Position numbers and translations under genes: made by a program. Positions 1-63,297 of a stretch of DNA of 64,000 nt are shown here, one piece after another; positions within the stretch are counted from its first letter, which is position 1; every line of letters starts with the position of its first letter. This DNA comes from Tomocerus qinae (taxonomy: Eukaryota > Arthropoda > Collembola > Entomobryomorpha > Tomoceridae). The DNA lies in assembly GCA_020055645.1 (NCBI GenBank), contig CM034546.1, positions 132,391,875-132,455,874 on the forward strand, written 5' to 3'. The notes below the pieces were generated by a model that was not told the origin of the DNA, did no database searches, and was given only the letters and a program-made list of their open reading frames with translations.

Positions 1-3000
1 CTGGAATATCGGAGATATTTGAAGAAGGATTTGAATGCAACGACGGTTTGAAAATTTTAGGAAATTCATGTTTTATTACTGGTGTCTTCTGTTCACTTAC
101 GGCCGCTGTTGCCATGTTTTTCAGTGTTTCAGCTGGAGATAGTGTTGACGCTGTAGTTGTAGGTGATGGAGAATTTGAAGCAGAGACATTTTGTTGAAAT
201 TCGGTTCTAAAATTTTCAAGATATTTGCTGTAGTCAAATTCTTCTGCTTCTTCAAAGTCATGCTGGACATTACTTGCGTTGCCCAAACCTTTGAGTAAAA
301 ACTCTTGCATCACATTGCTAACATCTGTCATTTCTATGTCACCATCATTTGAGTGGTCATTATCGCTGTTGTTTGAATCATTAGTATTTTCATCTGCAAA
401 TACATCATATCTTGTTCTGCTTTCTGACGGGGCAGTAAATACTTCTGACTCTGCAGATTCTATTTCTTGATTACTTGTTCCCTTTTGAGCTAGCTGAATG
501 CCAAAATGCAAATCTTCCTGTGCGCTGGTTAACGTTTCCTCCTCTTTCAAACCGGATGGAATATCATCTTTACCTTCTAACTTATTGACAATGTCGAAAA
601 ATGATGGTGATTTAATTATCGGACTTTTAGGGATTGATAAACTCTGCCTCTTTTCATTTGTTTGTTTTTGCCCTGAAAGACATTTAAAGTCTTCCAAGTT
701 ATCGCTGAAGTCGTCATTATAGTTAACTTCTTCAATATGATTTTTGATATATGTTATTATATCGAGGGTATTTGCTTCACACCCAAAACGTTTTTCTACA
801 ATATGACTACTGTCCAGCGTAATTGTTAGCAGTTTCTTAAATAAGCTGCTGTAGCGACCTGAACTCTCTTCAGGCAACAGGAAGAACTGAAATTGTTCAT
901 AGGCTAAAAATATTTTTTCTCGGGGAGAATTTTTAAAACGCTCCTTAAGATTTTTACAGAATTTGTCACTGTCTTTATCCCCGAACATGTACTCCTGAGG
1001 CTTGGTCCAGTTTTGAATGACGAATGTTATATTTTGATGAATAATCAATTGTTTATCAATAGACCGCAACCCTTCGGCAGTAACGCTAGTCAAATGTTTC
1101 CAGCTTACGTCCTATATAAAAAACCAAAATGCTGTCAGTTGTCAGTGATGACTGGCCCTTCTCCTGTAATGTCCTTTTAGAAATCAACTTTTGTATGGCA
1201 GACCTTTTGACAAATAGTGTAACTGTGTATAGTATGCTGTAACTTACATTATGAATGTGTATGGATAGTTTGGCAAACACGGAATATGTATGGGGATAAT
1301 TTTCTATACGCTACCGTAAAAACCTTAAAATCTAAAACAAGCAAAGTGGTACAAATATATCGTTCTGGAAAGTAACATAAAATTATAGTTACATAAGACC
1401 CAAGTAGAAACTGTCATGGCTGCAAGCAGAATGCATAGAAAGTTATGTGGTAAAGGGAAAAGAGATCAATGCTCTGATTCTCTGGTAATTATCCTTATTG
1501 ACATCGACATTTTCCTTAAATCACATTATAGGTATTCAAAAAACAAATCAAAATGCTACCAATATCGGTTGTTACCAAATTTTATAAAAGATTAAGTTAC
1601 CATACATACTTTATTAATCTTGCCATACACATTCATAAACCGCCATACCAAGCCACATAATCTAATATTAACTAACCTATACAAAAGTCATGTGTATGCC
1701 ATACAAATTCCTATTTTCCTCTGTTTTACGGATAATAATATTTTTCTTAAAGCCCCGTAAATCCCTATTCTAATAATTCTAAGCAAATAATTCAAAAGGT
1801 ATGACAAAAGTCTGTTTCTTACTGGGCTTGGTGTGGGTCGTGATGAATTGGTTGCTAATAGCCAAGATAAATTTAAAGAATAACGTATTGCCTACTAACA
1901 GTTTTGAGTTGTACTGGAAAAAAGTATTTTATGACGAATAATATAATATCTGCTGTATGTAGCTTACATGCATGACCACAATCGGCATCACAGTCAGGGT
2001 GATGTGCCATAATAATATGTAGTTCTCCAACAAGGACGTATTTAGGGGGGGTGCTAGGGTGCTTAAGCACCCCCTAAATATTTTGAAAACACACTAGATA
2101 TTATCGCGTTTTCACCACTTATTTAATATTTAAAGTATTTAATTCCAAATTGGAGGAAACATATATTTTCGTTTTCATATGACACAATAACATATATATT
2201 ATTTTCGAGCATTTTCGAATATGTTTGAACATTTTCGAATCCTTTTTTCCCTGTATCGAACCTTAGGATCTGAGATTACCTCACATTATATTGTTACAAT
2301 TACAAAATGGAAATGTGGTTAGCAATTGACCCCTTCTGAAATGAGGTTTTCTGTTTAAAACACCTAAAACTAAATCGGCCGAACTGGGTGGGTGATGACA
2401 GATAAATCATATATTTAGAAGGGTACTGCCCCCAGCCCCTTAATCTTGATATAAAATGGATTTTTTTGACATAGATTACAAATCATAAATTTTTTCGCGC
2501 TTCGCGCGTGTATTTCTTCTTTTTTACTAATATAATGATGCAAGGACGTATTGAGGGATGGGCTTTACCAAAATCAAAAAAAAGGGGCATTTTTATCACA
2601 ATCACAAAAAATTTCGCGCTCCGCGCGATTATTTCCTTTTTTAGGCCGTTTTTGACTCATATCCGTGAAAAAAATCCAAAAATTTTCGCGCTACGCGCGA
2701 ATAAATATCATTACAATATCTATTGGAATTAGCCCCTTCCGAAACTAAGTTCTGTATACGTGCTTGTAATTGATGGTTCTAATTGCTTGACTTATGTAAT
2801 ACTCATTTTTAGAAATTAGCACCCCCTAGATCCAATTTCTAGATACGCCCTTGTTCTCCAAGATATTCTTATTAACCTTTATATTACCACTAGTGAACCC
2901 AGCTTTACTAAAAAAATGCTAAATAGGCTTGTCGCTGTAGCAAGACCAATTTGGATTAGAAGTTTTTCAATGCTAGTTAATACGCACATTAAGATAATTT

Positions 3001-4048
3001 CTCTAATCATTTTCATTTAATCACTAATAATCACATTATGTAAGTTTCTATTATTGTTTCGATATTTTATAATACGAAGCAACTCATTTCGGTGGTTTAA
3101 TAGAAGTGGGCATTCGTATTTTACTTTTAAGGAACGTTCATATATTACGTGGACAGTGGATGGGACTCAAAAGTGTAATAATCACTTGCGTTACACGTGG
3201 GGGAGAGGACTTTGCGTTACGCAATACGTGCACGTACCCTAGGTTCTACCAGACGTACAGACATAGATAGATATAATATAGATATGTTGGTAAATTTATT
3301 GTTTTATCTAAGTCTGGCCGCAGCGAGGGGGGGGGGCACCGGGGCACGTGCCCCCCCCGAAATAGAGAAAAATAAAGAAATTTTTGTCTAAAATCTCAAA
3401 AAATCGCTACAATTTTCGCGCTTCGCGCGAAAATTAGCTAATTTTTTCTCTGTGCCCCCCCGAAATTTTTTTCTGGCTGCGGCCCTGGTCTGGTTATAAT
3501 ATAGAGAGAACTAAAGTTAGTAATTCATTCTGGCACACTTCCTCTTTCTTAAAAGACTTAAGTACTTTAAAAAGGTGTTCAATTATACTTACACTGATGT
3601 GATCTCCGTGCAGATAAATTGTTGTTGACGAGATGCAAGTACAGAGGCCACTTAACATGATGTAATCTCTTTCACTGCTACTCATAAAGTTACCTTTCAC
3701 GTCCAATAGATACACAGCCACTCTTTTCTTCACACCTTTTAAAACAAACATCGGTTTGGACCAAGTGATAATACACTTTTTGGTTTTGTTCGGAGTGTCA
3801 CCGAAAGTTAGAATTTTGTTGGCAGTTTCTTCATCGACTGTAATTTTATTTTCATTCTGAAGGTATTTCAGCATTTGTCCCAGTAGCTTGGATTTTCCTG
3901 AGCGCGGACTGCCTAAAACGGTTACAATTGCCACCAAGGCCCCTTCTGTTTCGGAAATTTCAAACAAATTTTCCAATACTTCTGTGTCGACACTGAATAC
4001 ATTGTTGTCAATTGATGCCAACTCCAAAAATCGTCCTGGCTCGCCCAT
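1..4048 (-). CDS. GB1-GTPase/helical/(Hsp70) fusion protein, left duplicate, truncated by window edge
   Basis: Two exons are visible: exon 1 at 4048-3593 (ATG to a GTAAGT donor, 152 codons, phase 0) and exon 2 from 1111 to the window edge (acceptor ATATAG, then DVSWKHLTS). Exon 1 is the N-terminal half of an atlastin/GBP-like G domain, with P-loop GSPRSGKS at residues 46-53 and the G3-like DVKG at 116-119. Exon 2 continues with ITFVIQNWTKP, where atlastins have the base-recognition RD. It is a near copy of the gene at 57635-63297. Exon 1 differs at five residues by my count, and exon 2 carries an in-frame 3-bp indel near 390. I saw no in-frame stop before the edge, so the helical and Hsp70 parts should lie to the left. 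The intron (1112-3592) is larger than its twin's because of two inserted elements. A TGA lies in frame just before the ATG. Confidence 0.85.
2031..2853. mobile_element. 823-bp non-autonomous hAT-like element with 8-bp TSD
   Basis: Ends are inverted: CAAGGACGTATTTAG on the left and the complement of CAAGGGCGTATCTAG on the right. An 8-bp target duplication, TTCTCCAA, flanks it at 2023-2030 and 2854-2861. The duplicated locus at about 62094-62101 has a single TTCTCCAA with no insertion, so the empty site is in this same window. The interior has no coding capacity but carries three CGCGC-NN-GCGCG-type palindromes near 2495, 2612 and 2686. The 8-bp TSD is typical of the hAT superfamily; the assignment rests on that and on the ends only. 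A second copy lies inverted at 19878-20674. Confidence 0.9.
2882..3311 (+). repeat. Dispersed repeat family R1, copy in intron 1 of the left gene
   Basis: Begins near ACTAGTGAACCCAGC and ends with a GATA-type microsatellite followed by GGTAAATTTATTG. Related copies are at 18882-19704, 27294-27862 (inverted), 31582-32404 and 62125-62750. Copy-specific internal sequence is shared with 27294-27610 and 62410-62740. No terminal inverted repeats or coding capacity are evident. Compared with its twin at 62125-62340, this copy has lost about 190 bp between two CCAGCT microhomologies. Confidence 0.7.
3318..3487. mobile_element. 170-bp MITE flanked by GTCTGG
   Basis: A G/C-homopolymer-rich insertion interrupts AAGTCTGGTTATAATATAG, which is continuous in the duplicate at about 62735-62755. 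GTCTGG is repeated on both sides (3312-3317 and 3488-3493). The ends share GGCCGCAGC in inverted orientation, and the interior has the palindrome TTTTCGCGCTTCGCGCGAAAA near 3413. It is non-coding. The family cannot be named with certainty; a 6-bp (possibly imperfect 8-bp) TSD is compatible with hAT. Confidence 0.8.
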
Positions 4049-46379: not shown

Positions 46380-47140
46380 CAAACCTTCAGAATTGAGTTT
46401 TTTATATATGCAGCTACGACATAATAAAAATTCAGACATTGATTGTATATGGATGTATAGAAATTCAGGTGACCTACGGATAATTAAAGTATACATCTGT
46501 AATATAAGATCTATATTATCTTTGAATATAAGTAACACAAAACCGAGCGTATAAATTTTGACTAAACTTCCAAAATCAAGTCATTAGATATGTAGCTACA
46601 ACATACTAAAAATCCAGACATTGATATTATATGGAAGTATAAAAACTTACTGTAGACCTAGAACAAATTGTAATATACGTCCGTAATATAGGAGTTACAT
46701 CATTTGACAATTTTTAACAAGAAACCTAGAGAACCAAATTGAACAAAATTGTGTAGGTGGATGCATTGTTTTCATATATTCCAAAAATATGTGATAATAT
46801 AGGACGTGTCAATTATCATTAAGGGCGGCAATTGTGCCTTCATATAGACGTTTATATAGTATAAGGATAAATAAATCGCGCCTACAACTTATGCATACAT
46901 AATTTAATATCGAGTGAACCTAATTCAACCAAATTTTTTAATATAAACTTCATATATTTACTAACAAACTGTGAACATTTTGGCCATGCCTATGACTATT
47001 AAGAATGGCATTTATAGGTTTATATAAATATCTACTATATATCGTATGCAATGATGTGACAGTTTTAAACTTGTATATGGATAATTTAAAAGCAAGTGAA
47101 GCAAATTCAACCAAACGTTGCGGATAAAGACTTCATATAG
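46380..47140. other. Gene-free AT-rich stretch
   Basis: Loosely repeated sentences (AACCAAATTGAACAAAATT..., TTCATATA) suggest an old diverged tandem of about 150-190 bp. No gene recognised. Confidence 0.35.
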
Positions 47141-48279
47141 ATGTTAACGGCAATAAGTAAATTCAGGCATTAAGCTTAATGCCTAAAAATGCCCGGCATT
47201 AAGCTTAAAGACTAGTCACTTAGTTTAAAGCCTAGGTATTAAGTTTAATGCCTGAATTTTACGCGGCATTAAGCTTAGTGCATGGTCTTATTGCCTGTTT
47301 TGGGTGGAAATGGATGTAAACCAAAAACTAAAGTCTAATATACGCATACGATGTGTATTCAAGTAAAATATAAATGTATAATATATGCATCTTGGTAGGT
47401 AATACTAATGTGCACATGTAGAACATGAAAATGTTTTGAAAAAAATAGATAGTGTAACAGGCGAAAATCCAAATTTTAGCCAGACGAATATTGAGGAATT
47501 AAAATTTTTTTATTGAGACCGGGTACAGAAAAGAAAGATTCAACCGATTTCATTCTCAACAATTTTATAGCAGTTGAATTCAAAGATCATGTTACTGGTG
47601 AAGTGATTTCTTCGTTATATAGCATGGACAATACTGATGTTCTGTTATTACGGAAGATTTATGAAATTATAATGCGCACACATTTGTAGCGTTCACGGTG
47701 GAAGGGGTGTATTCAGAAAAACTTGCATTTTTTCATTACGACCAGGCAATGCATAAAACATTTGTACATTTGGTTTCACCGCTATTGATTTGGAAACTCT
47801 TGTTCTCTTTAGTTGACATTGTTTACACTTTATACGCGATCTCATTAAAAACGTTTTTATTTTCTCATTATTCTTCTGACAAGATTTTATACTTAAATTT
47901 TCAGAAATAAAAATAAGTGAGTTCAATTTCTGTGGTGATGATTTGAAATAGTCGATAATGTTTGTTCGCATGCTGCATAATCTTTATCTTTTCCAATCAT
48001 TTTCATGTTCTACATGTACACATTAATATTGCCTACCAAAATGCACATTTTAAACATTTATTTTTACATGAACACACAGCGATTGTATTAGACTTAAGTA
48101 TTAGACTGTTAGACTTAAGTTTTTGTTGTTTACATTCATTTCCATCCAAATTAGGCAATAAGGTAAGGATTTAAGCCTAATGCCGAGCAAAATTCAGGCA
48201 TTAGTATTAATACCTAGGCTTTAAGCTTAATGCCTGGACATTAGGCCTAATGCCTGAATTCACTGATTTCCGCTAACAT
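47141..48279. mobile_element. 1.14-kb element with GGCATTAAGCTTAATGCC subterminal palindromes
   Basis: The left end ATGTTAACGGCAATAAGTAA and the complement of the right end (ATGTTAGCGGAAATCAGTGA) match imperfectly, followed on both sides by AATTCAGGCATTA and several copies of (A/G)GCATTAAGCTTAATGCC-type palindromes. A clear target duplication was not found, so the superfamily is unknown. It contains a small coding-looking segment (47422-47689). Confidence 0.6.
47422..47689 (+). pseudogene. Coding-looking fragment, unknown protein
   Basis: After an acceptor-like CACATGTAG, a frame reads HENVLKKIDSVTGENPNFSQ and TNIEELKF. A 1-nt slip at the T-run near 47507 then leads to LLRPGTEKKDSTDFILNNFI, ..., LLLRKIYEIIMRTHL and a TAG at 47687-47689. 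Composition is protein-like, unlike the surroundings. I do not recognise the family. It may be an exon captured by the element. Confidence 0.35.
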
Positions 48280-48329
48280 GTACATGCAAGCAAACAAACA
48301 CAAACATACGTACATACATAGGTGTTTTA

Positions 48330-48461
48330 TAATGTACCCCAAAGCAACTTACCCGACGTCCACCACACGCAACATACTTTTGTCGGGTGCCTTCCGAAGT
48401 TACCCGACAAAGATGCTTTGCTGATAGTGAACTTCGGGTATACTGCTTTGGGGTACATTAT
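48330..48461. mobile_element. 132-bp MITE with AATGTACCCCAAAGCA ends
   Basis: The left end TAATGTACCCCAAAGCA is the exact complement of the right end. Internal TTACCCGAC/GTCGGGT inverted motifs are present. A half copy lies at 18671-18735. It sits about 200 bp upstream of the fusion gene start. Confidence 0.75.
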
Positions 48462-48665
48462 TAAAAACATTAATTATTCAATGCGCGTGCACCAGATTAC
48501 GATTATACTTTAGTCTTCAAGATGCTGATGATGAAACTAGCCTGTTCTTTCTTTTTATGTTTTGGTATTGCATTCCGTGGAAAAATTTTTTGGTGTTTTA
48601 AATAGTATAGAATATCAAGAAAATGTCTTAATTTAATATTTGTACAAATAATTACACTCTTATAG

Positions 48666-51600
48666 ATGGCTATGGCAAAAGCAAGTGGTCGCACGGAAGA
48701 AAATATTGGGCAACCGGTCCAAATCATTGACATTATAATGAATCGCAATAAGCCATCGAAGATGAGTGCAAATACTACCAACCTAAGATACATATTAAAC
48801 AGTATTAGCGATCGGGACATCGCATTGATATCCGTTGCAGGGCCTTCTCGACTCGGAAAATCCTTTTTACTGAGTTTCATGGTTCGTTATCTTGGGGCGC
48901 TAGAGAAAGAAGATTCCACTGACTGGATTGACAACGAAGACCAAAATAAAGCCCTAGAGGGTTTCCCGTTCCAAAATGGTATTGAAAGAATGACTACCGG
49001 AATTTGGCTTTGGTCTCACCCTTTCATTATCAAAAATGCAGTTGGGAAAGAGATTGCCGTTCTATTAATGGACACTCAAGGCGTTTTTGACGACCACACT
49101 ACAATGAAAGAATGGTCTGCTATTGTCGGAATAAGCTTGCTCACATCTTCGTGCCTTATATACAATGTAGTCAATAATTTACAAGAAGATTCTCTTGCCA
49201 TTCTAGAAACATTTATGCAATTCGGAATGTTGTCAATGGAAAATTCTGATTCGGGGGATTCCTGCTTTCAAAAGTTGGTATTCTTAACTCCTCAGCGACC
49301 CAGGGTTCCATATGGAACCTCAAAAAATCAAAATCTCTAAATCGCCCAATTCGGCTATATCCGAGGTCTTTTTGTCGTAGAGTGCCAAACAAAAAAGTTT
49401 TTTTCCCAAAAAATTTAAATCTTGGATTCCCCTGATTCGTCTATATCCGAGGAGTTTTCTTTCTAGCACTTATAGTTCCTGAGATAGCATTTTTGGGATT
49501 TACGGTCCTTGAGGAGTTAATAAGAGATTGGAACATGCCAGATGACTGCCAATATGGTCCCCTTGGAGGACAAAAATTTTTAGCTCACAAATTACAAATT
49601 CAACAACATTTGCCCCCAGAATCGATCCGAGTACGACAGACTTTGACAAAATGTTTCGAAGAAATCGATTGCTTTCTGATGCCAGATCCTGGAGAGCAAG
49701 CCAAAAGTAATGACTTCAGAGGAAGTTTGGCTGAATTAGACGAAAAATTTGTAAAAAATCTCTTGTCATTTATGGACAGCCTAGTGAGTCCAGAGCAAAT
49801 AGCAGTCAAAAAGGTTGACGGGCAGCCTATCAAAGGGAAAGATTTATTGACTTATTTTCAGAGGTACGTTACCTTGTTTAACAACAGCGGAATTCCTAGC
49901 CCCACAAACATGCTAGATGCAACGGCATATGCAAGTTGCGATGTACTTGTTTCAAAATGCTTATCATCAGTCACTGATCAATTCCTTGAAATTCTGGGTA
50001 AAAAAGGTTTTGTAAACAAACAAGAATGGGAACAAATATTTAATCCGTTAAAAATTGAAGCAATGAAAAAATATGATTCAAAAATTAAATTTGGGGACCC
50101 GAAAATTGCTGCTCAGCAGCGAAGAAGGTTAGAAGGAGAACTTCTGAAACTATTGACTGATATCAAGAGCAAAAATGAAGAAGCTGTAAATCAAAAAGTC
50201 GATGAGGAACAGCTTAAACTGATCGATGAGTTTTCTTCAAGAATAGCTATTATTTTAGACAAGGAATTCCTGATGAAAGACGATTTGGAAACAGTCATTT
50301 TTAGAGAAACGGAATCCATGGTTAAAAATTTCTGCAAGGCTTTCAGTCAATGCAAGGAGGTCCTTGAAAGTAATGTACCTATTCTAACACAGAAATTGAA
50401 AGAAGTAGCAAGACAATTTCGCACAGGAAATGACGATAAAATTTCCAAAGCTTCTCAAATTTTAAATACCGCTGTAGAAGCCGCCCTTAGAAAATATCAA
50501 GATGATATGGACCTACGCATTCTACAAGCAGGCGAAGGGACAATTAGCGATGACTTTTTGTTAAAATTAGATGACACCTTTCGTAAACGGGCTTTTTCAC
50601 ATTTTCAAACTCTGCCAAAGGAAGGACCGGATGGCTTTGTAGCAAAATTTCGAACAGAACTTGAAATGAAAATGAATGAGAAATTTGCAGGTTATGCAGC
50701 AGAAAATTCAAAAAGAAAAACATGCAAAAAAGCAAAACGGAAGAACTGATCGGAGAGGTTACGAAATTGTATTTAGAAGAAATATCAGATGTATTGTCCC
50801 GGGAGGCCGCCCCAGATGCTCTGTTTCTTGAACACAAGCATTTTCAACTGCAACAGAAGTACTCTGATTTGTTCATGAGCAGATGTGAGATCCAAGAAGT
50901 AAGTAGTCTGATTCCATTTAGACAAATTCTCAATTCCAGTCTACAAAATGCTTTGGAAATGGCAAAACACCAATTGTTTGAAAAACAAAATGAGGTAAGG
51001 AAACACATTTCAGTTGAAATTGATAGGCAGGTCCAAGGTCACCACAATCAAATTTCCGAGCTACTAAATGAACGGCAGCTTTGTACTGAAGAATATTTAA
51101 AAAACACTCACGCTAAGGTCATTAAATCTTGCCAGTCAAAGCTGAAATTTCCAAGTTTCCTTACATCGGAAGAACGGAAGGAATACAATAGCATTTTATT
51201 GTCCCATTTAAATCGGGATTTTGAACTTTTGCTTTCCTTGTATGAAAATAAATATCAAGAAGCAAACGCCCTAGCAGAAAACGTCATCGCTACCATTATT
51301 GATCACTACCATAAAGCCATGGAAGGGATGTCAAATGACATATTTGATAAATCTCAACTGGATGAATGCCATTCAAAAGAGAAGATCAAATGGCAAAATG
51401 ACCTTTCGCAAAAAGTAACATTTTTCCCACCTGAAATTTTGAACCAATACCAAATAAAGTTGGATGGCCACCTAGAAGAAGCTTATGAAATAATTGTCGA
51501 CCATTTTGAAGCAAACCTTTCAGAGATGAATCAAAGAGTAATGTCCATTTATTATGATTCCATTTCCCAATATAGCACTCAAATGGAAACAAAAAACAAA

Positions 51601-54427
51601 CCTAACAGTGACAGGGAAGCCTTGAGTGGATGGCACGAACTATACAAGGAAAGAGCGGTTACAAGTTTCAATCACCATATAATGAAGTTGAAAATGAATT
51701 GTGATTCCCAAAGAAAGAAATTAGAACGACAGCTTTCTGAAGAATTCCAAAGTATTTTGCTGATAAAAGATGCAAATGAACAGGAAATTGAAAACAAAGC
51801 TGAAAGCCATCTCCAGGACGCTTTGGCAAAATTTAATCGAGATGCTTCAAATTTAATGGAAGACAAAAGTTTGAAACCAGATTCATTTTTGAAAAAACTC
51901 AAAGATATTAGAATCAGGGCAAGTCAATACTTTTATGAAAATAGTTCTGGTATTTCCCGACAAATAATGAGCACGAAGAAGATAGACCTCGATGAACAAC
52001 TTGAAAAATGCTATACCAACATTTACGATGACTTCATGAAACTAAAAGAAGAGGAGACATTATTAATTGATACTTCTGTTGCAACATCTATTTCTTATTA
52101 TCAATCCAAGATGGACGGATTGTTAAAAGACTCTCAGCTTGTCGAAATGGATAATTTTGAAGTTTTTCATGAAAAAAGTCTTAAAGAAGCTCTCCAAAAA
52201 ATCCCAGATGACTGCCTAGAATCAGTATCAGAATCCGTTAAACAAAAAATTGACTCATTGTATGCGAAATACAAAATTGGCCAACAACAACGTCTTGATG
52301 AAGCTGCCAATGACGTGAGAAGGATGGTGGAAGACTTGAAAACTGAAATCACTAATACCGTATCCCAGAAATGTAAGGCGGCTAAAGATTCCAAAGAGTT
52401 GTTCGACTTAAAAGAAAATCTAAAAACCAACGCACATGAAATGCTAAAATCTTTCAAAGTTTCCGGTGCACAATCAAATAAGCAGTCTTTGATAGACGAA
52501 GTTGAAAAACATTTACAAGAAACGATTGTCAAGGGGGAAGAAGAGATTAATAGCAGAGAACCAGAAAGCACGGTGATGAATATAGTCAAAGATACTGCAA
52601 TTAAAACATACCAAGAGGAAATGGAGAAACACTTCTCAGTCACCCCATTTATGGAGCCTAGAATTTTGGATGGCCATCATAAAAATGCTTGTAAAAAAGC
52701 AATGCATAAGGCTGGAACCGTAATTACTTTAACCCCAAAAGTCACCATCGAATTGGATGTTATGTTTAAGGGCGCATTTACAAAATTCCAAAACAAGAAT
52801 CGTATGAACACCACGAAAAACCCTGCAATAGGAATTGACTTGGGAACTACTTTCTCATGTGTGGCGGTTTATAACCAAGGTATGAAAAGGGTCCAGATAA
52901 TCCCAAATGAAAACACAAAAAATACTACACCAAGTTATGTCGCCTTTACCAAAGACGGAACTGAGCTCGTTGGCGAACCTGCTAAAAACCAAGCACATAT
53001 GAATCCCGAAAATACAATATTCGATGCGAAACGTTTGATCGGGCGACGATTTGACGAAGACGTTGTTCAACGTGATATAAAACAGTGGCCTTTTAAGGTT
53101 ATCAATGAAAATGGGTCCCCAAAAATTCAAGTAAATGACAAAAATTACTTTCCTGAAGAAATTTCGGCCAAAGTTCTAACAAAAATGAAAGATATTGCAG
53201 AAATCCATTTAGGTTGTAAAGTTGAAAATGCGGTGATAACTGTTCCTGCTTACTTCAATGATGGTCAAAAACAAGCGACAATTCATGCAGGTCAAGTAGC
53301 AGGCTTGAATGTTCTTGGAATTCTAAGCGAACCTACCGCCGCGGCCATTGCTTACAGTTTGAACGAAACTTATAATAAAAGTCGCAACGTATTAATATTT
53401 GATTTTGGCGGCGGTACTTTTGATGTTGCTATCTTGTCGATACACAATGGAAAAATCAATGTCAAAGCGGTAGATGGCGATACTCATTTAGGGAGGAGAA
53501 GATTTTGACAGCAACATGGTCGACTATTGCGTAGAGCAATTCAGAAACGATAAAAATATTGATTTGGTTGCTGATCGGGAATCTGATAACGTCATTTTGC
53601 GAGGGGATTGCAATAGAAGACTTCGACGACTAAGAAATGAGTGTGAAAAACGAAAAATTGACCTATCAGGAGCTACTACTGCAGCAGTGGCGCTTGATTG
53701 CATTCACGAAAGAACAGATATTCACGTTGAAATTTCAAGAAGTGAGTTTGAGAAAATGAACAAGATTTTATTTGACAAAGCAGTTGACATTGTCCAAAAA
53801 GCCCTTGAGGGTGCAAGGCTGAAAAAAGAAGAAATTGACGATATTGTTTTAGTTGGAGGATCAACTCGTGTTCCAAAAATTCAAGAGCTACTTACTAATT
53901 TCTTTGATGGCCGAGCATTAAATAGATCCATTAACCCTGATGAAGCCGTAGCTGTCGGTGCCGCCGTTCAAGCTGCCATTCTTAATGGATGCACAGCAGA
54001 GGAGCTGGCTGACTTTGAACTGACTGATGTTACACCACTGTCTATTGGTATCGAGGTTGTTGGAGGAAATCATTCAATTATAATTGGCAAAAACACGCCG
54101 ATACCTGTGAAAGAGAAACAGAACTACACGACAACCAAAGACGATCAGACTTCCGTTAACATTAAGATTTATGAAGGAGAGGAGAAAAAAACAAAGGACA
54201 ACCATTTGCTTGGCGAATTTGTTTTAGATGGAATTCCGAAGGGAAAGAAAGGTTCCGCGGATATTGTAGTTTCAATGGAAATTGACACAAATGGAATTTT
54301 GACGGTTAATGCCACATGCAAAGGTGGTAATACTTCCAAAAATCTGTCTATTCAACAAAATAAAGGGCGATTGACAGAAGACGAGATCAGGAAATTGTCA
54401 AATAAAACCGTGCATGGTTTGCCATGA
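48666..54427 (+). CDS. GB1/RHD3 GTPase - helical repeat - Hsp70 fusion protein (interrupted reading frame)
   Basis: Four colinear pieces total about 1,840 codons. Piece 1 (48666-49286) and the start of piece 2 form an atlastin/GBP-like G domain: P-loop GPSRLGKS at residues 59-66, switch I MTTG at 109-112, G3 DTQG at 136-139, G4 IRDW just after 49519. The atlastin-like middle domain follows ([20 protein letters not shown]). 49900-52800 is a long helical region with about six AxxxYxxxM motifs each followed by an LxxxH segment. From about 52820 comes Hsp70: [35 protein letters not shown], then the beta substrate-binding part, ending at TGA without the alpha lid or EEVD. Breaks: a TA-flanked element at 49287-49517; a frame change near 50715 in an A-rich stretch; and a 1-nt excess G near 53487 inside the conserved LGGEDFD. 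No introns otherwise; CACTCTTATAG precedes the ATG. No signal peptide or membrane segment was seen. It could be a recently disabled gene, an introner-bearing gene, or partly an assembly error. Confidence 0.88.
49287..49517. mobile_element. 231-bp TA-flanked TIR element inserted in the GTPase coding sequence
   Basis: ACTCCTCAGCGACC at the left end pairs with the complement of the right end (ACTCCTCAAGGACC). TA flanks both sides (49285-49286 and 49518-49519). Conceptually removing it with one TA leaves KLVFL directly followed by IRDW, which is what atlastin family members have. Internally, ATTCG(G/T)CTATATCCGAGG occurs twice about 75 bp apart. If left in mature RNA it stops translation. A GT at 49278 and an AG at 49516 would splice it out in phase with loss of two codons (VF), so an introner-like role is possible but the sites are weak. 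Confidence 0.82.
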
Positions 54428-54429
54428 TT

Positions 54430-54678
54430 CATTAATACTTATCTATAATAATAATGCATGATCATTTATTTCAGGAAAAATTGGAATATTTGCATACATG
54501 ATGTAACATAATACAAGTAACTTGATATAAATATTAAATCATTGACTACACTCTGTTTTTAATCGCTTTTAATTTTTGATTCCACTTCACTATAAGTAAA
54601 CAAAATAATTTTATTGGGTTGTAAGGCTTTTTTTCTTGCTTATTATGATTGACATCTCGCTCTAATCGAATAGAATTA
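54430..54678. other. 3' flank of the + fusion gene
   Basis: No canonical AATAAA was spotted close to the stop; AT-rich sequence only. Confidence 0.35.
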
Positions 54679-54807
54679 CAGTCGCGTCAGATATAGATCG
54701 AACTCCATGCGACATAAACGGCCGTCATGCAGGCTTTTTTACATGTAAAAATGAGGCCATAAAATCGTTTCTTTAATGTCGAGTTCGATCCATTTCTGAT
54801 CTGACTG
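54679..54807. mobile_element. 129-bp MITE at TA
   Basis: CAGTCGCGTCAGATATAGAT pairs imperfectly with the complement of ATTTCTGATCTGACTG; the CGAACTC/GAGTTCG stem is internal. TA lies at 54677-54678 and 54808-54809; Tc1/mariner-like. Confidence 0.75.
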
Positions 54808-55081
54808 TATATTATTATTTCAATCTCCTATACTCCATTTTATATCCTTGTACGTGAATTCAGTACTTTTTCATAACAGTTTTCATATGTTTGGGTACCG
54901 TAAGTAGCTATTCGGTATCAAAAATGAAGCAACTAATTCTCCCTTTTTGCTATTAAATGGAGTGAATGAATGAAGTATTAAAAGAAACTGTACAGGGTGG
55001 CGTATTGATTGAACGGTAATGGAACTTAGTGCGTGAATGATAATGGAACTGAGTTTTATTTTTGTTCTTCCCCTGCACTGT

Positions 55082-55294
55082 TATATCGTCCTTTAAGGAA
55101 CGAAAAAGTCAAAATATTTTTGTTTTGTGCACGAATAAGCCAAAATCCATTTTTGTTTGGTGGCGGAAAAAGCCTATATCCATACGCTTGTTAGTGGAGT
55201 TAGGCTATTTCCTGCCCAAATGAATATAGGCTTATTCGTGAAGCAAACAAAAAAAATTGAATATTGGCTTTTTCGTTACTTGAAGGACGATATA
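55082..55294. mobile_element. 213-bp MITE with TATATCGTCC ends
   Basis: TATATCGTCCTTTAAGGAAC then GAAAAAG pairs with the complement of CTTTTTCGTTACTTGAAGGA then CGATATA. Inner inverted segments GAATAAGCC / GGCTTATTC. TA-bounded. Confidence 0.75.
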
Positions 55295-56261
55295 CGTTTG
55301 TAACTTTGGTGACTTTATTGGACTGCCTTCCCGGTTTTCGAGAAGCCTTCGAGCCGCCTTCCTCTTGATGATGTCTACCAAAAGAAACCGAAGCAAGAAA
55401 AAATATTTGCTTTTTTATTTTTTAGCAATGCATACTAAGCGGTTAGAGGACATTTCTTGGTATAGGATAATAGTCATCCTGCTGATTTACTACTAATTAA
55501 AATAATCGGAAGCTTTTTTGTCCTAAAATAAAAATTTATTTTACAATATTCAATTTTCATGGAAAACACATGTAAGGCACACATTCGCATATAGCAAGGA
55601 AAACTGTTCATTCACTGTCGTCGGATGGGAACCACAACAGACTTTAATTCAGTATTTCACAAAAAAAATATCAGAGTTCTCTAAAAGCTCATGATCAATA
55701 CAGCTTAAGTTCGTATCGGATAGGTTGCATACATCATGTTACGAAAACAATATATTAAAATTTTTGCAAGTTGTATTCTTAATCCTTTTAATATAGTGAC
55801 TAATATTGATGAAAAGTGGCACTCAGATGTGAAAGCCGAGAAACATTACAGGCCTGGAGTTCGAATCCCATGCAGCAGATGGATGCCCTGCAAAAAATTT
55901 CCCCCTTACCAAACAATCAATGATTATTTTGGAAATTGAAAAATTTTAAAAATAGGGAATGGGGGAGAGACATGTCGATTTTCTGATACTTATGTTTTGA
56001 AATAGACTAAAGGCAGCAATTTGATGTTTCTCGCTATTTTCTGAATTTAATATCTCTTAACAGGTGACGTAAAGGGAAATCTGAAAGGAATATAAAATTA
56101 ATTACTGAGATTAAAATGCAATGGATGTGCTTTTCTACTTAGCCTAATGGCCAAGAATTCGTGCATTCATGCAATTCGTTCAGGTTTTTTCGATTAAAGT
56201 CCGGGTTCATAGTTACGGACAGATTTTCCGACTATCATATTCCCATTTAAATTACACATAA
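55295..56261. other. Gene-free stretch between the convergent genes
   Basis: 55845-55870 contains a B-box-like GGAGTTCGAATCCC, and 56138-56205 has an A-box-like TTAGCCTAATGGCC followed by GGGTTCATAGTT; both look like worn tRNA-derived repeats. The short ORF at 55736-55939 is not supported. Confidence 0.35.
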
Positions 56262-56583
56262 ACTTTTTTTAGGAGAATCCCTAAGGATCTAAGACCATTG
56301 TTCTACACCCATACATTAAATGTACAAAAGATCCGTCGAAACCTATTCTATGCAGGACATAGAGAAAATTTCACATTTTTGTCTTCTATATACTTCAAGA
56401 TATAAGATTTAAAGATGATATCTTTAAAATTAAAAGGTAGAAGACAAAAATGTGAAATTTTCTCTATTTCCTGCATAGAATAGGTTTTGACGGATCTTTT
56501 TTACATTTAATGTATGGGTGTAGATTCTGTAGATGTATAGGTGTAATGGTCTCAGATCCTTAGGGATTCTCCTAAAAAAAAGT
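56262..56583. mobile_element. 322-bp foldback MITE, arms ~130 bp
   Basis: ACTTTTTTTAGGAGAATCCC then TAAGGATCT pairs with the complementary right arm. Inner arms GTAGAAGACAAAAATGTGAA / its complement meet at about 56420. Probably TA-flanked. Confidence 0.8.
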
Positions 56584-56589
56584 ACGAAT

Positions 56590-57612
56590 TTCGCATAAAA
56601 TCGAGATCGTATTTACCCTCCATGACAAATTTTGCTAGTTACCTAGCAACATCCCTTCTTGTGGCTGAGACAGGTAAAGGGTTTCAAAAAGTATACCCTG
56701 ACCTTAGTGTAAAATTAACTTAGTGAGTATATAGTATCACGTTGTGACTGTCTATGAAGGAAACTTTATGTTTCACACAAACCAAATGAAGCTTTTCTGT
56801 TTTTAACAAGATAAGGTTTAGTTAATGATTTTTCTTTTATGTGACACACAAAAATTCTTAAACAAAGAAACCCCCAACCGCATCAATGAAACTACATTTT
56901 TCGAAATGCTAATAAATATCATTACCATAAAATGATTATTGCTATTCCATAATTCCAAAAATAAAGATATCTGGGCTTACTTGATTGAATAAGATTATTT
57001 TAATTACTTATATTAGTTTAATTAATATACAAAAAAGACTACTGGGTATCTATAAATTTCTGAAACTTGTTTTTATTTTGCAGCGAACTTTGCTAAACCG
57101 ATTAAGATTTTTTTGTGTTAATACCTATGTATTGTTAGCTATTACTATATATATAGAAAATGGGGCGTGAGTTCACCGATAATTAATAGTTAAAGAGGGT
57201 TTATTCATCTCCAGTGAAAAGTGCTCCTTATGTTATTATACCACAAATTTTAAGAGGTATTGGCTAAGAAGCCGCCATATATGTGTTTTTTAACAATTAA
57301 AAGTCAAGCAATGGAATATGGAAAATCGTTCCTAACGCAAATGAAATGAACCATAATTGTTTTAGTATATTTTTGATGTGATATAGGTCACCTTCACTAT
57401 TTTTATATAAATGTACATATATAATTTATGGGTAAAAAATTCTTTTATATCGTGCAGGTAAGCTATTGTAAGAAACAGCAAATAAATACTCAGATCAACA
57501 ATTAACTTAATTTCTTTTGTTTGAATTATATTGAAGGGAAGTAAAATTGTATTTTATTAGACGTGACATTTGAAATTGGTGGAATATAATGACATTTAGA
57601 GAATATTGCATG
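56590..57612. other. Gene-free 3' flank of the - fusion gene
   Basis: AT-rich; no exon recognised. 56595-56690 resembles 29935-30010. Confidence 0.35.
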
Positions 57613-57618
57613 TTTATT
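57613..57618 (-). promoter_or_regulatory. Poly(A) signal AATAAA of the - fusion gene
   Basis: Complement of TTTATT, 17 nt past the stop codon at 57635-57637. Confidence 0.65.
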
Positions 57619-57634
57619 AAAATATCAATTGAAA

Positions 57635-60600
57635 CTAATATGGCTTAGTATATTTATCATAATTTTCCTGCACCTGTGCTACTGCACGGTCGATATCAGG
57701 GACCAGTGTATGTTTATCCCGTAGCAGCTTAAATGTGTCGTTTATGGACCTGTTAATGTTGAAGCGAGCTGTCTCACTTACAGAAGGGCTTTGAATCTTT
57801 TTACTGATGCTAAGTAAAAAGCTGTTGGCTTCTGCAGTGGCATCTTCACGTGTGGTGACAAACTTTCTGATTTTTTTCTGTAACCTATCTATATCCTCAG
57901 GTTTCAAATTGTTTCCGCAAGTATATCGTTTTGATTTCCTTCTGGAACATGCATCGCTCCATGATTGATCGATAATGCTCCAGTGATACTTTTTGACCTC
58001 ATCGGAATTGGGATGGTACTGTTTCCAACGATTTTGAGCAGAAATATCGCCACATAGCAAAGCAGCCATGAAAGCGCAACCTTGCGAGATGATTTGTTTG
58101 TCTTTGACAAATACATTTCTGACCTTTTCCAGCGAACCAATTAGAGTTTTCTTGGCAGTAATTGCAGCTGGACTTTTTTCGTTATCAATTAAAATTACAT
58201 CTATTTTATCTTTCAGGCAAGAGAATTTCACAATGTTGCTAATAAATGCATTTATTCGATTTTCCGGGCTGTTTGAAGACCAAAATCCCACTCCAACATA
58301 GTTATCACCAGAAACGGCTTTTACTTCTAGAGATTTACTGGTATCATAATACCCCGCATCCCATTTCTCATATGTTGTGTTGATCAAAATAAAATCTTTT
58401 AGACCTGGCCTTTTATCCGAGAAGTAGGTGAATCCCACAGCAGCCGAACATATATCTCTCAAAATGTGAATTTTTTGAAAACCAGCAATAAGTGCTGCAT
58501 CATAAACAGCTTTCATTTCATTCACACCCAAAAAGGACGGCACTGCTATTACACAGACGTTTATAATGCATTTTAATGCACTCTGATGAAGATATTTCCA
58601 TCTAGAAAAAAGTAGAGAAAGACATTCTTCCATTCGAAATGTGCATTCTTCGCCATTCCACTTGACTCTCTCTGAGTGGGCAATATTTCCTTCGAATAGA
58701 GAGGAAAGCTTGATGTGATTGTTCTCGAACTTCCCTGAGGTGCTTCCTACACAAACTTCGCCATTGTATCCAATAACCAAGTTTTTGCTTGTAGTTTGAG
58801 TTTCAATTTTATTTTTGCAAAATATAGACACTGTAACGTTATTAGTTTCAATGTATATACCTAGCCCATACTCAGGTTTTGGTGCATTATGTTCCTCAGA
58901 ATATTGGCTAATACCATGGTCCATATTAACTTTCTGGGTTGATTGATTTTGACTACTTCGCAAGTTATAAGATGAACTTGGGGCTTCTTTTCGCATTGGA
59001 CACCTTGGGAGGATTTTGTTTCAATTTCTCTTCAAATTCAAGAGTTAAAAACGAATAACATTCTAGTATTTCAATTTCTAAGCCTCGCTTCTTCTCTTCA
59101 ACTAAATTGGTAACTTCAATCGTGCTTGTAAGTTGATCAAACTTTCGCTTTGCTTCGGAAAATTTCGTCTCGTGTAGATTTTGTAATTGACTCTTTTCTG
59201 CATAAACGCCTAAGCGTACTGGTCCATTCATTTCTGTTTCATAATACATTTTGGCCGTCATAGCTGCAGTGTCAATTTTCTTTAAAGACGTCTTCAATCT
59301 CAAGTCATTATTTCTATGAATATTGTCATACAACCTTTTCAGTTCCAGCTCAATATTGTTTTGTAAATCTGCCAAAATGGGAGAATGTTGTAAGTGACAA
59401 GTTTTTATGATTGCTCCAATCAATTTGGATTGTAGGGCATCGTGAATTTTCAACAGACTTGGGTCGTCAACGACAGAATTTTTGGTAGCTTCCATATCTT
59501 TTTCATATGCAGCTTTTACTGTTCGTACAGCAGCATTTATAATTTTGGTTTTCTCTTTAAAAATATTACTGTTATGCTTGCAAAAGTAATCTTTTGCTTC
59601 GACAATTTTCGCTGTGACCTTACTTTGCAAATAAATTCGTGAATCGAATGTCTTCATTGCTTCTGTGAGACATCGTTCATGGTTATTCTGAAAAATAGTC
59701 TCGTTCATATGTATGGAGGTCTGGAAGGATTTTTCCATCTCTTCAATATATTTCAAAACAGCGTCAATGGCTTTATTAACATTCGCATCTTCTTGAAATA
59801 TAACTTTTTTATTTTCGGGTGACCCAATAAAATCATTAACTTCATTTAAAATATCACGTGATGACTTGTTTTCACTTAGTGAACAATTTCCAAAAACTTG
59901 ACAAATAGTATCTTCCAATTTGCTTTGGTCTATTTCTGAGGCGGAGGCTGACTTGGTAGCTGACGTCATCTGTGGCGCATGCCACTTAGTCTGTGTATCT
60001 ATTCGGGGAAAATTGTCGACAGCTTTCTTCTCGGGTACAGGGTACGAATAATCCTGGGGTTTTTCTTTCACCACATTAGAATGGATTCTAATGTCTGGAA
60101 TATCGGAGATATTTGAAGGAGGATTTGAATGCAACGACGGTTTGAAAATTTTAGGAAATTCATGTTTTATTACTGGTGTCTTCTGTTCACTTACGGCTGC
60201 TGTTGCCATGTTTTTCAGTGTTTCAGCAGGAGATAGTGTTGACGCTGTAGCTGTAGGCGATGGAGAATTTGAAGCAGAGACATTTTGTCGAAATTCAGCT
60301 TTAAAAGGTTCAAGATATTTGCTGTAGTCAAATTCTTCTGCTTCTTCAAAGTCATGCTGGACAATATTTGCGTTGCCCAATCCTTTGAAAGAAAACTCTT
60401 GCATCACATTGCTAACATCTGTCATTTCTATGTCACCATCATTTGAGTGGTCATTATCGCTGTTGTTTGAATCATTATTTTCATCTGCATATACATCATA
60501 GCGTGTTCTGCTTTCTGACAGGGCAGTAAATTCTTCTGCCTCTGCAGATTCTATTTCTTGATTACTTGTTCTCTTTTGAGCTAGCTGAATGCCAAAATGC

Positions 60601-63297
60601 AAATCTTCCTGTGCGGTGGTTAACGTATCCTCCTCTTTCAAACCGGATGGAATATCATCTTTACCTTCTAACTTATTGACAATGTCGAAAAAAGATGGGG
60701 ATTTAATTATCGGACTTTTAGGGATTGATAAACTCTGCCTCTTTTCATTTGTTTGTTTTTGCCCTGAAAGACATTTAAAGTCATCCAAGTTATCGCTGAA
60801 GTCGTCATTATAGTTAACTTCTTCAATATGATTTTTGATATATGTTATTATATCGAGGGTATTCGCTTCACTCCCAAAACTTTTTTCTACAATATGACTA
60901 CTGTCCAGCGTAATTGTTAGCAGTTTCTTAAATAAGCTGCTGTAGCGACCTGAACTCTCTTCAGGCAACAGGAAGAACTGAAATTGTTCATAGGCTGAAA
61001 ATACCTTTTCTCGAGGAGAATTTTTAAAACGCTCCTTAAGATTTTTACAGAATTTGTCACTGTCTCTATCCCCGAACATGTACTCCTGAGGCTTGGTCCA
61101 ATTTTGAATGACGAATGTTATGTTTTGATGAATAATCAATTGTTTATCAATAGACCGCAACCCTTCGACAGTAACGCTAGTCAAATGTTTCCAGTTTACG
61201 TCCTATATAAAAAACCAAAATACTGTCAGTTGTCAGTCATGGGTGGCCCTTCTCTTGTAATGTCCTTTTAGAAATCAACTTTTGTATGGGAGAGCTTTTG
61301 ACAAATAGTGTGACTGTGTATAATATGCTGTAACTTACATTATGAATGTGTATGGCAAGTTTGGCAAATACGGAATATGTATGGTGATAATTTTCTATGC
61401 GCTACCGTAAAAACCTTAAAACCTAAAACAAGCATAGTGGTACAAATATTCGTTCTGGAAAGTAACATAAAATTATAGTTACATAAGACCAAAGTAGAAA
61501 CTGTCATGGCCGCAAGCAGAATGCATAGATAGTTAGTTAAGGGAAAAGAGGTCAATGCTCTGATTCTCTGGTAATTATCCTTACTGACATCGACATTTTC
61601 CTTAAATCACATTGTATTCAAAAAACAAATAAAGATGTAGCATTACTTACCAATATCGGTTGTTACCAAATTTTATAAAATATTATCTTACCATGCATAA
61701 TTTATTAATCTTGCCATACACATTCATAAATCGCCATACCAAGCCACACAATTTTTGTATGCCATACAAATTCCTATTTTCCCCTTTTTTACGGATAATA
61801 ATATTTTCCTTAAAGCCTCGTAAATCCTTATTCTACTAATTCTAAGCAAATAATTCAAAAGGTATAACAAGAGTCTATTTAATACTGGGCTTGGTGTGGG
61901 TCATTATGAGTTGGTTGCTAATAGCCAAGATAAACTTAAAGAATAACGTATTGCTTATTAACAGTTCTGAGTTGTACTGGAAAAAAGTATTTTATGACGA
62001 ATAATATAATATCTGCTACGGCCTATATAGCATACATGCATGACCACAATCGGCATCACAGTCAGGGTGATGTGCCATAATAATATGTAGTTCTCCAAGA
62101 TATTCTTATTAACCTTTATATTACGACTATAGTGAACCCAGCTAAGGGGAGAACCTAGCACTCAAGAAAATTTCAGCAAGCCTCCCATAGTAATAAAAAC
62201 AATTCCAAAAAAGTCATCGGTATTTCCGTTAGATTATTATTTAACCAATACTGTTATTTAATTATACAAAAAGGGTGGGCACACGGGCACAAATAAATCA
62301 AGGGAGCAGTAAAAAGTAACACCAGCTTTACTAAAAAAATGCTAAATAGGCTTGTCGCTGGAGCAAGACCAATTTGGATTAAAGTTTTGCAATACTAATT
62401 AATACGTACATTAAGATAATTTCTCTAATCATTTTCATTTAATCACTAATAATCACATGTAAGTTTCTATTATTGCTTCGATGTTGTAATATTACGAAAC
62501 AACTTGGTGGTTTAATGGAAGTGGGCATTCGTATTTTACTTTTAAGGAACGTTCATATATTACGTGGACAGTGGATGGGAGAAGGAGTTACTCAAAAGTG
62601 TTACAGTAATCACTTGCGTTACACATGGGGGGAGGATTTTGAGTTACGCAATACGTGCACGTACCCTAGGTCCTACCAGACGTGCAGACATAGATAGATA
62701 TAATATAGATATGTTGGTAAATTTATTGCTTTATCTAAGTCTGGTTATAATATAGAGAGAACTAAAGTTAGTAATTCATTCTCGCCACTCCCCCTTTCTT
62801 GAAAGACTTAGTACTTTAAAAAGGTACACAATTATACTTACACTGATGTGATCTCCGTGCAGATAAATAGTTGTTGACGAGATGCAAGTGCAGAGGCCAC
62901 TTAACATGATGTAATCCCTTTCACTGCTACTCATGAAGTTACCTTTCACGTCCAATAGATACACAGCCACCCTTTTCTTCACACCTTTTAAAACAAACAT
63001 CGGTTTGGACCAAGTGATAATACACTTTTTGGTCTTGTTCGAAGTGTCACCGAAAGTTAGAATTTTGTTGGCAGTTTCTTCATCGACTGCAATTTTATTT
63101 TCATTCTGAAGGTATTTCAGCATTTGTCCCAATAGCTTGGATTTTCCTGAGCGCGGACTGCCTAAAACGGTTACAATTGCCACCAAGGTCCCTTCTGTTT
63201 CGGAAGTTTCAAACAAATTTTCCAATACTTCTGTGTCGACACTGATTACATTGTTGTCAATTGATGCCAACTCCAAAAATCGTCCTGGCTCGCCCAT
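57635..63297 (-). CDS. Divergent GB1-GTPase - helical repeat - Hsp70-like fusion protein, three exons, ~1,317 aa
   Basis: Exons: 63297-62842 (donor AGT|GTAAGT), 61202-59004 (acceptor ATATAG|GAC, donor AAG|GTGTCC) and 58933-57635 (acceptor CAACCCAG|AAA). All joins are phase 0. The 70-nt second intron contains CTTATAAC, a good branch-point match, and removes what otherwise looks like a frameshift. Domains: G domain with P-loop GSPRSGKS (46-53), DVKG where DTQG is usual, no TTG switch I, and QNW where RDW is usual; middle domain (FQFFLLPEESSGRY); an acidic, low-complexity linker (about residues 280-480, NDSNNSDNDHSNDGD); and three repeats of YxxxM...LxxxH type (YIEEMEK, YEKDMEA, YETEMNG). Last comes an Hsp70-like part (VIAVPSFLGVNEMKAVYDAA) without IDLGTT or DFGGGT signatures, ending in an alpha-lid-like helical tail. 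A probable pseudoenzyme paralogue of the + gene it converges with. Confidence 0.88.
58934..59003 (-). other. 70-nt mini-intron between helical and Hsp70-like regions
   Basis: GTGTCC...CAACCCAG with an internal CTTATAAC branch candidate. Splicing joins KQNPPK to KVNMDHGISQY in phase 0. Confidence 0.7.
62125..62750 (+). repeat. R1 dispersed repeat in intron 1 of the right gene
   Basis: Counterpart of 2882-3311, but it keeps about 190 bp (62144-62333, AAGGGGAGAACCTAGCACTC...) lost on the left. It ends AGATAGATATAATATAGATA, GGTAAATTTATTGC. Confidence 0.7.

What the first reader, a model, noticed from the sequence alone, without database searches (positions are those of the whole stretch)
48666..63297. 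A family of GTPase-helical-Hsp70 fusion proteins
Two convergent genes here, and a third copy at 1-4048, join an atlastin/GBP-like GTPase domain to an Hsp70 module through a long helical region. Each module is recognisable from motifs (P-loop GPSRLGKS and DTQG with [29 protein letters not shown]). I know of no characterised protein with this order. A GTPase that remodels or assembles on membranes, fused to a chaperone ATPase, would be a new kind of machine. The functional reading is inference.
Basis: partly seen in the sequence, partly recalled or inferred. Interest (0 to 1): 0.93.

Follow-up and report, generated by a model that had tools for sequence, protein, structure and literature searches.

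The report
Springtail GTPase-Hsp70 fusion gene family
A springtail-like genome carries a family of giant proteins that join a membrane-remodelling type of GTPase, a rod of repeated helical bundles and a cut-down Hsp70 chaperone in one chain, a combination I found in no paper searched and whose job is still unknown.

Summary
The architecture is real. The window's gene 1 is a broken copy of an intact gene, about 6 kb outside the window, whose single 1842-codon open frame runs from GTPase to Hsp70. The same order occurs in two named springtails, Folsomia candida and Orchesella dallaii, and in unnamed metagenome or archive proteins. The host genome has 15 near-complete lidless Hsp70 matches, three with stops inside, all on one contig, plus degenerate ones like gene 2. 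The 'helical region' is a tandem array of atlastin-type three-helix-bundle units. Twenty-five fused Hsp70s group apart from the host's canonical Hsp70. They keep the ATP site but lack the hydrophobic linker, the lid and, in 23 of 25, the J-protein-contact arginine. All three modules show purifying selection in two paralogue pairs. Likeliest function (inference): a cytosolic GTP-assembled scaffold whose Hsp70-type heads are uncoupled from the J-protein cycle, perhaps in defence or stress.

The parts
48666..49287 (+). Gene 1, first part of the atlastin/GBP-type GTPase domain (P-loop [12 protein letters not shown])
   Evidence: Pfam GBP 3.1e-31; nearest solved structures atlastin-1, 8.4e-39
49288..49520 (+). 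233-nt insertion inside the GTPase frame: terminal inverted repeats of 17-20 nt flanked by TTAA, like a piggyBac-type miniature element (type by recalled signature); absent from the intact copy in L009
   Evidence: Inverted repeat 49281-49300/49504-49523, 85%; only these two arms found in the window; the two blastn pieces to L009 meet at TTAA
49521..49796 (+). Gene 1, rest of the GTPase domain (IRDW onward)
   Evidence: Pfam GBP 4.2e-14, profile 156-258
49797..52815 (+). Gene 1, rod of about seven to nine tandem atlastin-type three-helix-bundle units; frame break near 50.7 kb
   Evidence: the last on the intact copy; unit profile hits atlastin-1 at 4.7e-13; all-helical AlphaFold2 model of 50680-52803, model pLDDT 75
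52816..54424 (+). Gene 1, lidless Hsp70 (nucleotide-binding domain plus substrate-binding beta domain); frame break near 53.49 kb; stop soon after the beta domain
62842..63297 (-). Gene 2 copy B, exon 1: diverged GTPase domain (GSPRSGKS, DVKG), donor GTAAGT
   Evidence: Pfam GBP 5.6e-12; sequence
61203..62841 (-). Gene 2 copy B, intron (GT-AG, inferred from sequence)
   Evidence: the same donor and exon junction in copy A
59004..61202 (-). Gene 2 copy B: end of GTPase (IQNW), low-complexity acidic region, three bundle units (about 59765-59055)
57638..58932 (-). Gene 2 copy B: degenerate Hsp70-like domain; frame break at 59020-58965 just before it, absent in copy A
   Evidence: Pfam HSP70 1.6e-6; copy A open there; fold model unusable, pLDDT 42
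1..4048 (-). Gene 2 copy A (exon 1 4048-3593, intron 3592-1112, exon 2 from 1111); continues left of the window in L026 to its degenerate Hsp70
   Evidence: Pfam GBP 9.4e-13; longest aligned piece to copy B 96.9% over 5138 columns

Best explanation
Shown: a multigene family that encodes, in one chain, an atlastin/GBP-type GTPase head, a rod of repeated atlastin three-helix bundles and a C-terminal lidless Hsp70 with an intact ATP site; the window holds a recently broken copy and two copies of a degenerate paralogue. Inferred: the protein is soluble. GTP drives head-to-head pairing and swinging of the rods, as in atlastin and GBP, so that many copies assemble on a target. The Hsp70 heads bind exposed peptides through the kept beta-domain pocket. 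Because lid, hydrophobic linker and usually the J-contact arginine are gone, ATP hydrolysis would be slow or intrinsic and the grip loose and multivalent, giving avidity-based capture instead of J-protein-driven folding. Degenerate paralogues would be non-catalytic partners in mixed assemblies. Clustering, recent duplicates, broken copies and pseudo-enzymes suggest a defence or stress effector.
For: Open frames through all three modules: 1842, 1831, 1490, 1525 and 1528 codons. GBP+HSP70 in F. candida (two proteins), O. dallaii and eight unnamed proteins (scans). Bundle-unit profile hits atlastin at 4.7e-13, and 4.4e-8 without the first and second units; 32 units beyond the last one against a mean of 0.02 in 50 shuffles. 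No membrane-like segment after the GTPase in nine fused proteins. Twenty-five fused Hsp70s on one side of a branch, 100/100, with an insertion absent from three canonical ones. Eleven ATP-site positions intact in 24 of 25; linker leucines lost in 22 of 22 that reach it. No lid in 20 of 20 that read through the beta domain. Ka/Ks 0.09-0.29 across modules in two pairs. Linker and R167 function: PMC7289447, PMC6843406 (passages). Active and degenerate genes share clusters (coordinates).
Against: No expression, biochemical or localisation data. Two of 25 fused Hsp70s keep arginine at 171 and three have lysine, so loss of J-contact is not universal. L013 and L019 have intact Hsp70 ATP sites but no recognisable P-loop, so GTP-driven assembly cannot hold for every member. 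L022 has lost part of the ATP site. In the GTPase tree the fused label needs at least three changes, so gains or losses of Hsp70 are likely. Defence is only a gene-family-dynamics argument; rim positions of the peptide cleft are variable, but the choice of positions was post hoc and all 14 contacts together are not unusually so.
Confidence: 0.35

Rival explanations
1. A general stress chaperone or disaggregase: the GTPase only oligomerises the rods, and the Hsp70 heads hold or extract aggregated proteins in desiccation, cold or heat.
For: ATP site kept and central cleft valine 438 kept in 19 of 22; Hsp70 is the most constrained module in both measured pairs (Ka/Ks 0.13 and 0.09).
Against: Loss of lid and linker, and of the J-contact arginine in most copies, removes what DnaK needs for refolding (PMC6843406, passages). 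A general chaperone would not obviously need so many duplicated and degenerate copies.
Confidence: 0.25
2. An atlastin-like membrane-fusion or tethering machine with a chaperone attached.
For: GTPase and bundle units are nearest to atlastin, not GBP.
Against: No 19-residue window reaches hydropathy 1.6 after the GTPase in nine fused proteins; in the five single-frame own genes the highest window lies in the GTPase core. A lipid anchor or amphipathic helix was not tested.
Confidence: 0.1
3. The Hsp70 is a passenger: the GTPase-rod does the work and the Hsp70 is a scaffold or pseudo-domain, as in gene 2.
For: Degenerate Hsp70s in gene 2, L025 and L027, and in P0005, P0011 and P0014.
Against: ATP-site residues intact in 24 of 25 main-type copies and Ka/Ks 0.09-0.13 for Hsp70.
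Confidence: 0.15
4. Artefact: separate GTPase and Hsp70 genes read together, or assembly error.
For: The window copies do carry frame breaks, some perhaps sequencing errors.
Against: Uninterrupted frames in five own loci and the same order in other species.
Confidence: 0.01

Closest known systems
Atlastin (ER membrane-fusion GTPase)
   Same: GTPase domain nearest atlastin-1; rod units match atlastin's three-helix bundle; DTQG and IRDW motifs
   Different: Several bundle units in tandem instead of one; no membrane anchor seen; Hsp70 at the C-terminus
GBP (guanylate-binding protein)
   Same: Same Pfam GTPase family PF02263; apparently soluble; long helical part
   Different: Weaker match than atlastin; I know of no GBP with Hsp70 (recalled)
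Cytosolic Hsp70/Hsc70
   Same: 45-52% identical to the host's own canonical Hsp70; ATP site kept
   Different: No lid, no EEVD, polar linker, extra 6-12 residues in the NBD, usually no arginine at 171; fused to a GTPase
Atlastin-like proteins without Hsp70 in mite, pseudoscorpion, tick and Folsomia (P0013, P0015, P0016, P0018)
   Same: GTPase plus helical part; the unit profile hits all four. It does not hit P0017, Folsomia 'Atlastin-1', at 0.01
   Different: No HSP70 in their precomputed domains
BmAtlastin-n of silkworm (PMC4926086; abstract and outline seen)
   Same: Cytoplasmic atlastin relative with GTPase and coiled-coil middle; antiviral in silkworm
   Different: No Hsp70 mentioned in the abstract; sequence not compared here

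Membership tests
Atlastin | Atlastin-type GTPase motifs (P-loop, DTQG, RDW) | tested here: met
   In gene 1's intact copy and four other single-frame genes; not in gene 2, L013 or L019
Atlastin | Three-helix-bundle middle domain | tested here: met
   Unit profile to atlastin-1 residues 359-432, 4.7e-13, 4.4e-8 without the first and second units
Atlastin | Two transmembrane segments and cytosolic tail after the bundle | tested here: not met
   Highest 19-residue hydropathy after the GTPase is below 1.6 in 11 of 12 proteins (nine fused, P0011, P0013); the exception is gene 2, 2.06, inside its Hsp70-like part; none in the helical part of 12 of 12
Atlastin | GTP-dependent membrane fusion | not testable with these tools
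   Needs biochemistry
GBP | PF02263 GTPase domain | tested here: met
GBP | GBP_C helical domain PF02841 | tested here: inconclusive
   Not reported for gene 1 pieces at 0.1; unit profile reaches GBP5 at only 0.0028
Canonical cytosolic Hsp70 | ATP-site residues | tested here: met
   24 of 25 fused rows keep D10, T13, T14, K71, P147, E175, D199, T204, D206, E268, K271; L022 does not
Canonical cytosolic Hsp70 | Hydrophobic interdomain linker | tested here: not met
   0 of 22 rows that reach it; the host canonical Hsp70 has DVLLVDV
Canonical cytosolic Hsp70 | Alpha-helical lid and EEVD tail | tested here: not met
   0 of 20 that read through the beta domain. tblastn of the lid is strong only in L001 and L004 (6e-71, 7e-40); five of the 16 fused loci give weak matches (0.005 to 0.69), none downstream of the Hsp70, and L024, a broken locus, one at 0.51; 0.8-1.4 kb downstream was held for the 13 complete own loci
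Canonical cytosolic Hsp70 | J-protein contact arginine (R171) | tested here: not met
   R in 2 of 25, K in 3, other in 20: met by a minority
GTPase-rod-Hsp70 family (this report) | All three modules in one protein in more than one species | tested here: met

The most novel reading that the evidence does not exclude
A two-nucleotide machine of a new kind: GTP hydrolysis assembles and moves multi-bundle rods while an ATP-fuelled, J-protein-independent, lidless Hsp70 head captures targets, and catalytically dead paralogues tune mixed assemblies. In springtails this would be a diversified cell-autonomous defence system comparable in role to GBPs.
Probability: 0.25. Interest if true: 0.94.

Novelty: new variant of a known kind. 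Interest (0 to 1): 0.8.

Why it matters
It shows that a dynamin-superfamily GTPase has been joined, consistently with one origin, to an Hsp70 that then lost the parts governing the usual chaperone cycle while its ATP site stayed intact and all three modules stayed under purifying selection in the pairs measured. This gives a natural test of what an Hsp70 does without lid, linker and J-contact, and of whether a GTPase rod can replace co-chaperones. Database entries call the Folsomia protein 'uncharacterized' or 'Heat shock cognate 71 kDa' (name cut in the listing), so the family is hidden by annotation.

Tried and rejected
Rejected: separate genes (single frames); transmembrane anchor. My own first gene 2 model with a 71-nt intron before the Hsp70 part: copy A is open through that stretch, so a frame break in copy B is likelier. 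My early result that all fused Hsp70s lost R171 (11 of 11) became 23 of 25 with more paralogues. An early Hsp70 tree without host sequences did not resolve the fused clade; the GTPase tree has 4 of 18 inner branches well supported, needs at least three changes of the 'fused' label and has a very long gene 2 branch.

Led nowhere: AlphaFold2 of the gene 2 Hsp70-like domain (pLDDT 42); gene 2 homologue search, 7604 candidates, none at 1e-3; the Foldseek and VIA rows shown were all Hsp70-type matches, so the helical part was not tested there. Cleft-rim variability: suggestive for three positions picked after looking (308 and 665 of 20000 random triples as high), not for all 14 contacts. The species name was not established: host genome 334443149 bases, contig C2 71848904. 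I recall Tomocerus qinae as near 334 Mb; the papers searched did not confirm it. That the host is a springtail is inferred.

Limits: the homologue searches scored only the 7981 and 7989 candidates sharing most words, so absence outside springtails is not shown. The genome HSP70 search scored 72 of 90 candidates. A genome-wide GTPase census and a search for the insertion elsewhere did not complete. Literature searches were seen as listings (20 of 487, 0, 4, 8 of 56 and 6 of 139 papers).
Full report
OBSERVATION. The window lies at contig C1:132391875-132455874 of a 334-Mb genome in 115 contigs. Gene 1 (+) spans 48666-54427. Its pieces match Pfam GBP (3.1e-31, 4.2e-14) and HSP70 (2.2e-90, 2.8e-88). 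The helical region and the start of Hsp70 share one 942-codon frame (50680-53505). Three things break the gene in this copy: a 233-nt insertion with terminal inverted repeats and TTAA flanks inside the GTPase, and two single-nucleotide length differences from an intact copy. That copy, at C1:132380678-132386203 in locus L009, is one open frame of 1842 codons that starts with methionine. It matches the window at 99.88-99.90% over 46353-55218 apart from the insertion; the match stops where L009 stops. The window's gene 1 is therefore a very recent duplicate, either decaying or partly mis-sequenced.

GENE 2. Gene 2 (-, 63297-57638) has an exon with a diverged GTPase, an intron, a low-complexity acidic stretch, three bundle units and a degenerate Hsp70. 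A copy (2A) starts at 4048 and runs out of the window to the left, where its frame continues from the bundles into the Hsp70-like domain. The longest aligned piece of the two copies is 96.9% identical over 5138 columns; two shorter pieces are at 96.3% and 90.2%. In the parts compared, about 20.5 of 319.7 synonymous sites changed against 32.5 of 1243.3 non-synonymous ones, Fisher p 0.0024; exon 1 Ka/Ks is 0.19 and the compared part of exon 2 is 0.50. So intact gene 1 plus gene 2A, and broken gene 1 plus gene 2B, look like two copies of one convergent pair, although the gene 1 copies are far more alike than the gene 2 copies.

FAMILY IN OTHER SPECIES. A search with gene 1's GTPase and helical part found 6 proteins; a search with an alignment of five of them found 45 at 1e-10. 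By precomputed domains, 11 of the 45 carry both GBP and HSP70: F. candida P0001 and P0007, O. dallaii P0012 and unnamed P0002, P0003, P0004, P0006, P0008, P0009, P0010 and P0014. My own scans confirm this for P0001-P0004, P0007, P0012 and P0014. P0005, P0011 and P0014 have a well-matched GTPase and only a remnant Hsp70 (7.7e-5, 1.1e-4, 1.7e-5). O. dallaii belongs to Collembola. Mite, tick and pseudoscorpion relatives carry the GTPase and helical part without HSP70. The searches scored only the candidates sharing most words, so presence outside springtails is not excluded.

FAMILY IN THE HOST GENOME. Of 86 HSP70 matches, 15 start at profile position 1 or 2 and end at 488-523, and all 15 lie on contig C1; three of these have stops inside. 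Three matches on C2 are full-length (1-596). I fetched those 15 loci and one more. Five hold all three modules in one frame: L009, L011, L012, L015 and L016. In the others the modules lie in separate frames (introns or breaks) or the GTPase is diverged. Thirteen further C1 matches cover only about profile positions 97-221, like gene 2, 12 of them in open frames of 541-1729 codons. I fetched two of these (L025, L027): each has bundle units and an Hsp70-like part; L025 also has a weak GTPase match (4e-15), while in L027 a GTPase remnant is seen only by eye. By coordinates, each group of the 15 on C1 also holds a degenerate copy except the one at 128.97 Mb (counting the match at 78370374, positions 96-241, and gene 2 itself). 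L013 and L019 have intact Hsp70 ATP-site residues but no P-loop.

THE ROD. A profile of the last unit before Hsp70 found 32 further units in 12 sequences after the last 100 residues of each helical part were removed; 50 shuffles gave a mean of 0.02 and a maximum of 1. Iteration gave 87 units in 12 sequences, a number inflated by training on the same set and a loose cut-off of 0.1. A profile of 26 units hits atlastin-1's three-helix bundle at 4.7e-13, and the best 11 solved sequences are all atlastins. With the first and second units left out (16 of 26 kept) it still hits at 4.4e-8. AlphaFold2 makes the second half of this region all helix up to residue 708, followed by strands of the Hsp70 fold (mean pLDDT 75.2, pTM 0.33, so relative placement is unreliable). 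No 19-residue window reaches hydropathy 1.6 after the GTPase in the nine fused proteins scanned; in the five own single-frame genes the highest window lies in the GTPase core.

THE HSP70. Twenty-five fused Hsp70s from the host and other sources form one side of a branch with 100/100 support against the host's canonical L001 and L004 and bovine Hsc70. This is consistent with one origin but does not prove it. All 25 share an extra 6-12 residues in the NBD that these three lack. They are 45-52% identical to L001. Eleven ATP-site positions are intact in 24 of 25 (L022 differs). The linker leucines are gone in 22 of 22 that reach the linker. Position 171 is R in 2, K in 3 and another residue in 20. 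All 20 that read through the beta domain (13 own, 7 others) stop within 28 residues of the end of the match or of that point, and no strong lid match is found in the fetched loci. In DnaK, the arginine R167 and the linker leucines serve J-protein action and interdomain coupling (PMC7289447, passages; PMC6843406, passages); solved complexes of auxilin crosslinked to Hsc70 R171C appear in the listing. The central cleft valine 438 is V in 19 of the 22 fused rows that reach it.

SELECTION. Ka/Ks in L014/L015: GTPase 0.20, rod 0.29, Hsp70 0.13. In L012/L016: 0.16, 0.25, 0.09, with Ks 1.8-1.9 and so near saturation. Of two further pairs, L012/L018 gave 0.09 for Hsp70 (Ks 2.0) and no value for the other modules, and L009/L011 was saturated throughout.

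MECHANISM. Shown: the architecture, the conserved nucleotide sites, the lost regulatory parts and the selection. Inferred: GTP-driven assembly (from atlastin and GBP), uncoupled Hsp70 heads (from DnaK mutants), and a defence or stress role (from gene-family dynamics and the antiviral cytoplasmic BmAtlastin-n, PMC4926086, abstract). I put 0.35 on the full mechanism and about 0.98 on the architecture.

NOVELTY. No paper with this fusion appeared in the listings of searches. In the Folsomia genome paper (PMC5490193, passages) 'GTPase', 'atlastin' and 'guanylate' do not occur in the main text. The library lacks most subscription journals. I rate it a new variant of a known kind (an apparently soluble, multi-bundle atlastin relative with an Hsp70 added), with a categorically new machine as the bold reading.

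Noticed in passing
P0007 (Folsomia candida, 2112 aa), residues 1-345: Extra N-terminal part with a weak AAA match (AAA_22, 1.6e-4, residues 130-243, below Pfam's cut-off); a real fusion or a gene-model join.
   Followed up: partly
L022 (C1:64457000-64466000): Hsp70-like stretch followed by a helical part resembling the post-GTPase region; a rearranged or broken copy.
   Followed up: partly
window 4562-6147: Short-unit tandem repeat, open in three minus-strand frames; likely non-coding satellite.
   Followed up: no
window 14592-18178: Long repeat arrays open in several frames on both strands.
   Followed up: no
window 22783-24774: Open frames that look like a hAT-type or zinc-finger transposase (by eye).
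   Followed up: no
L001-L003 (C2:14673691-14686556): Three neighbouring full-length canonical Hsp70 genes ending in EEVD, on mixed strands.
   Followed up: partly
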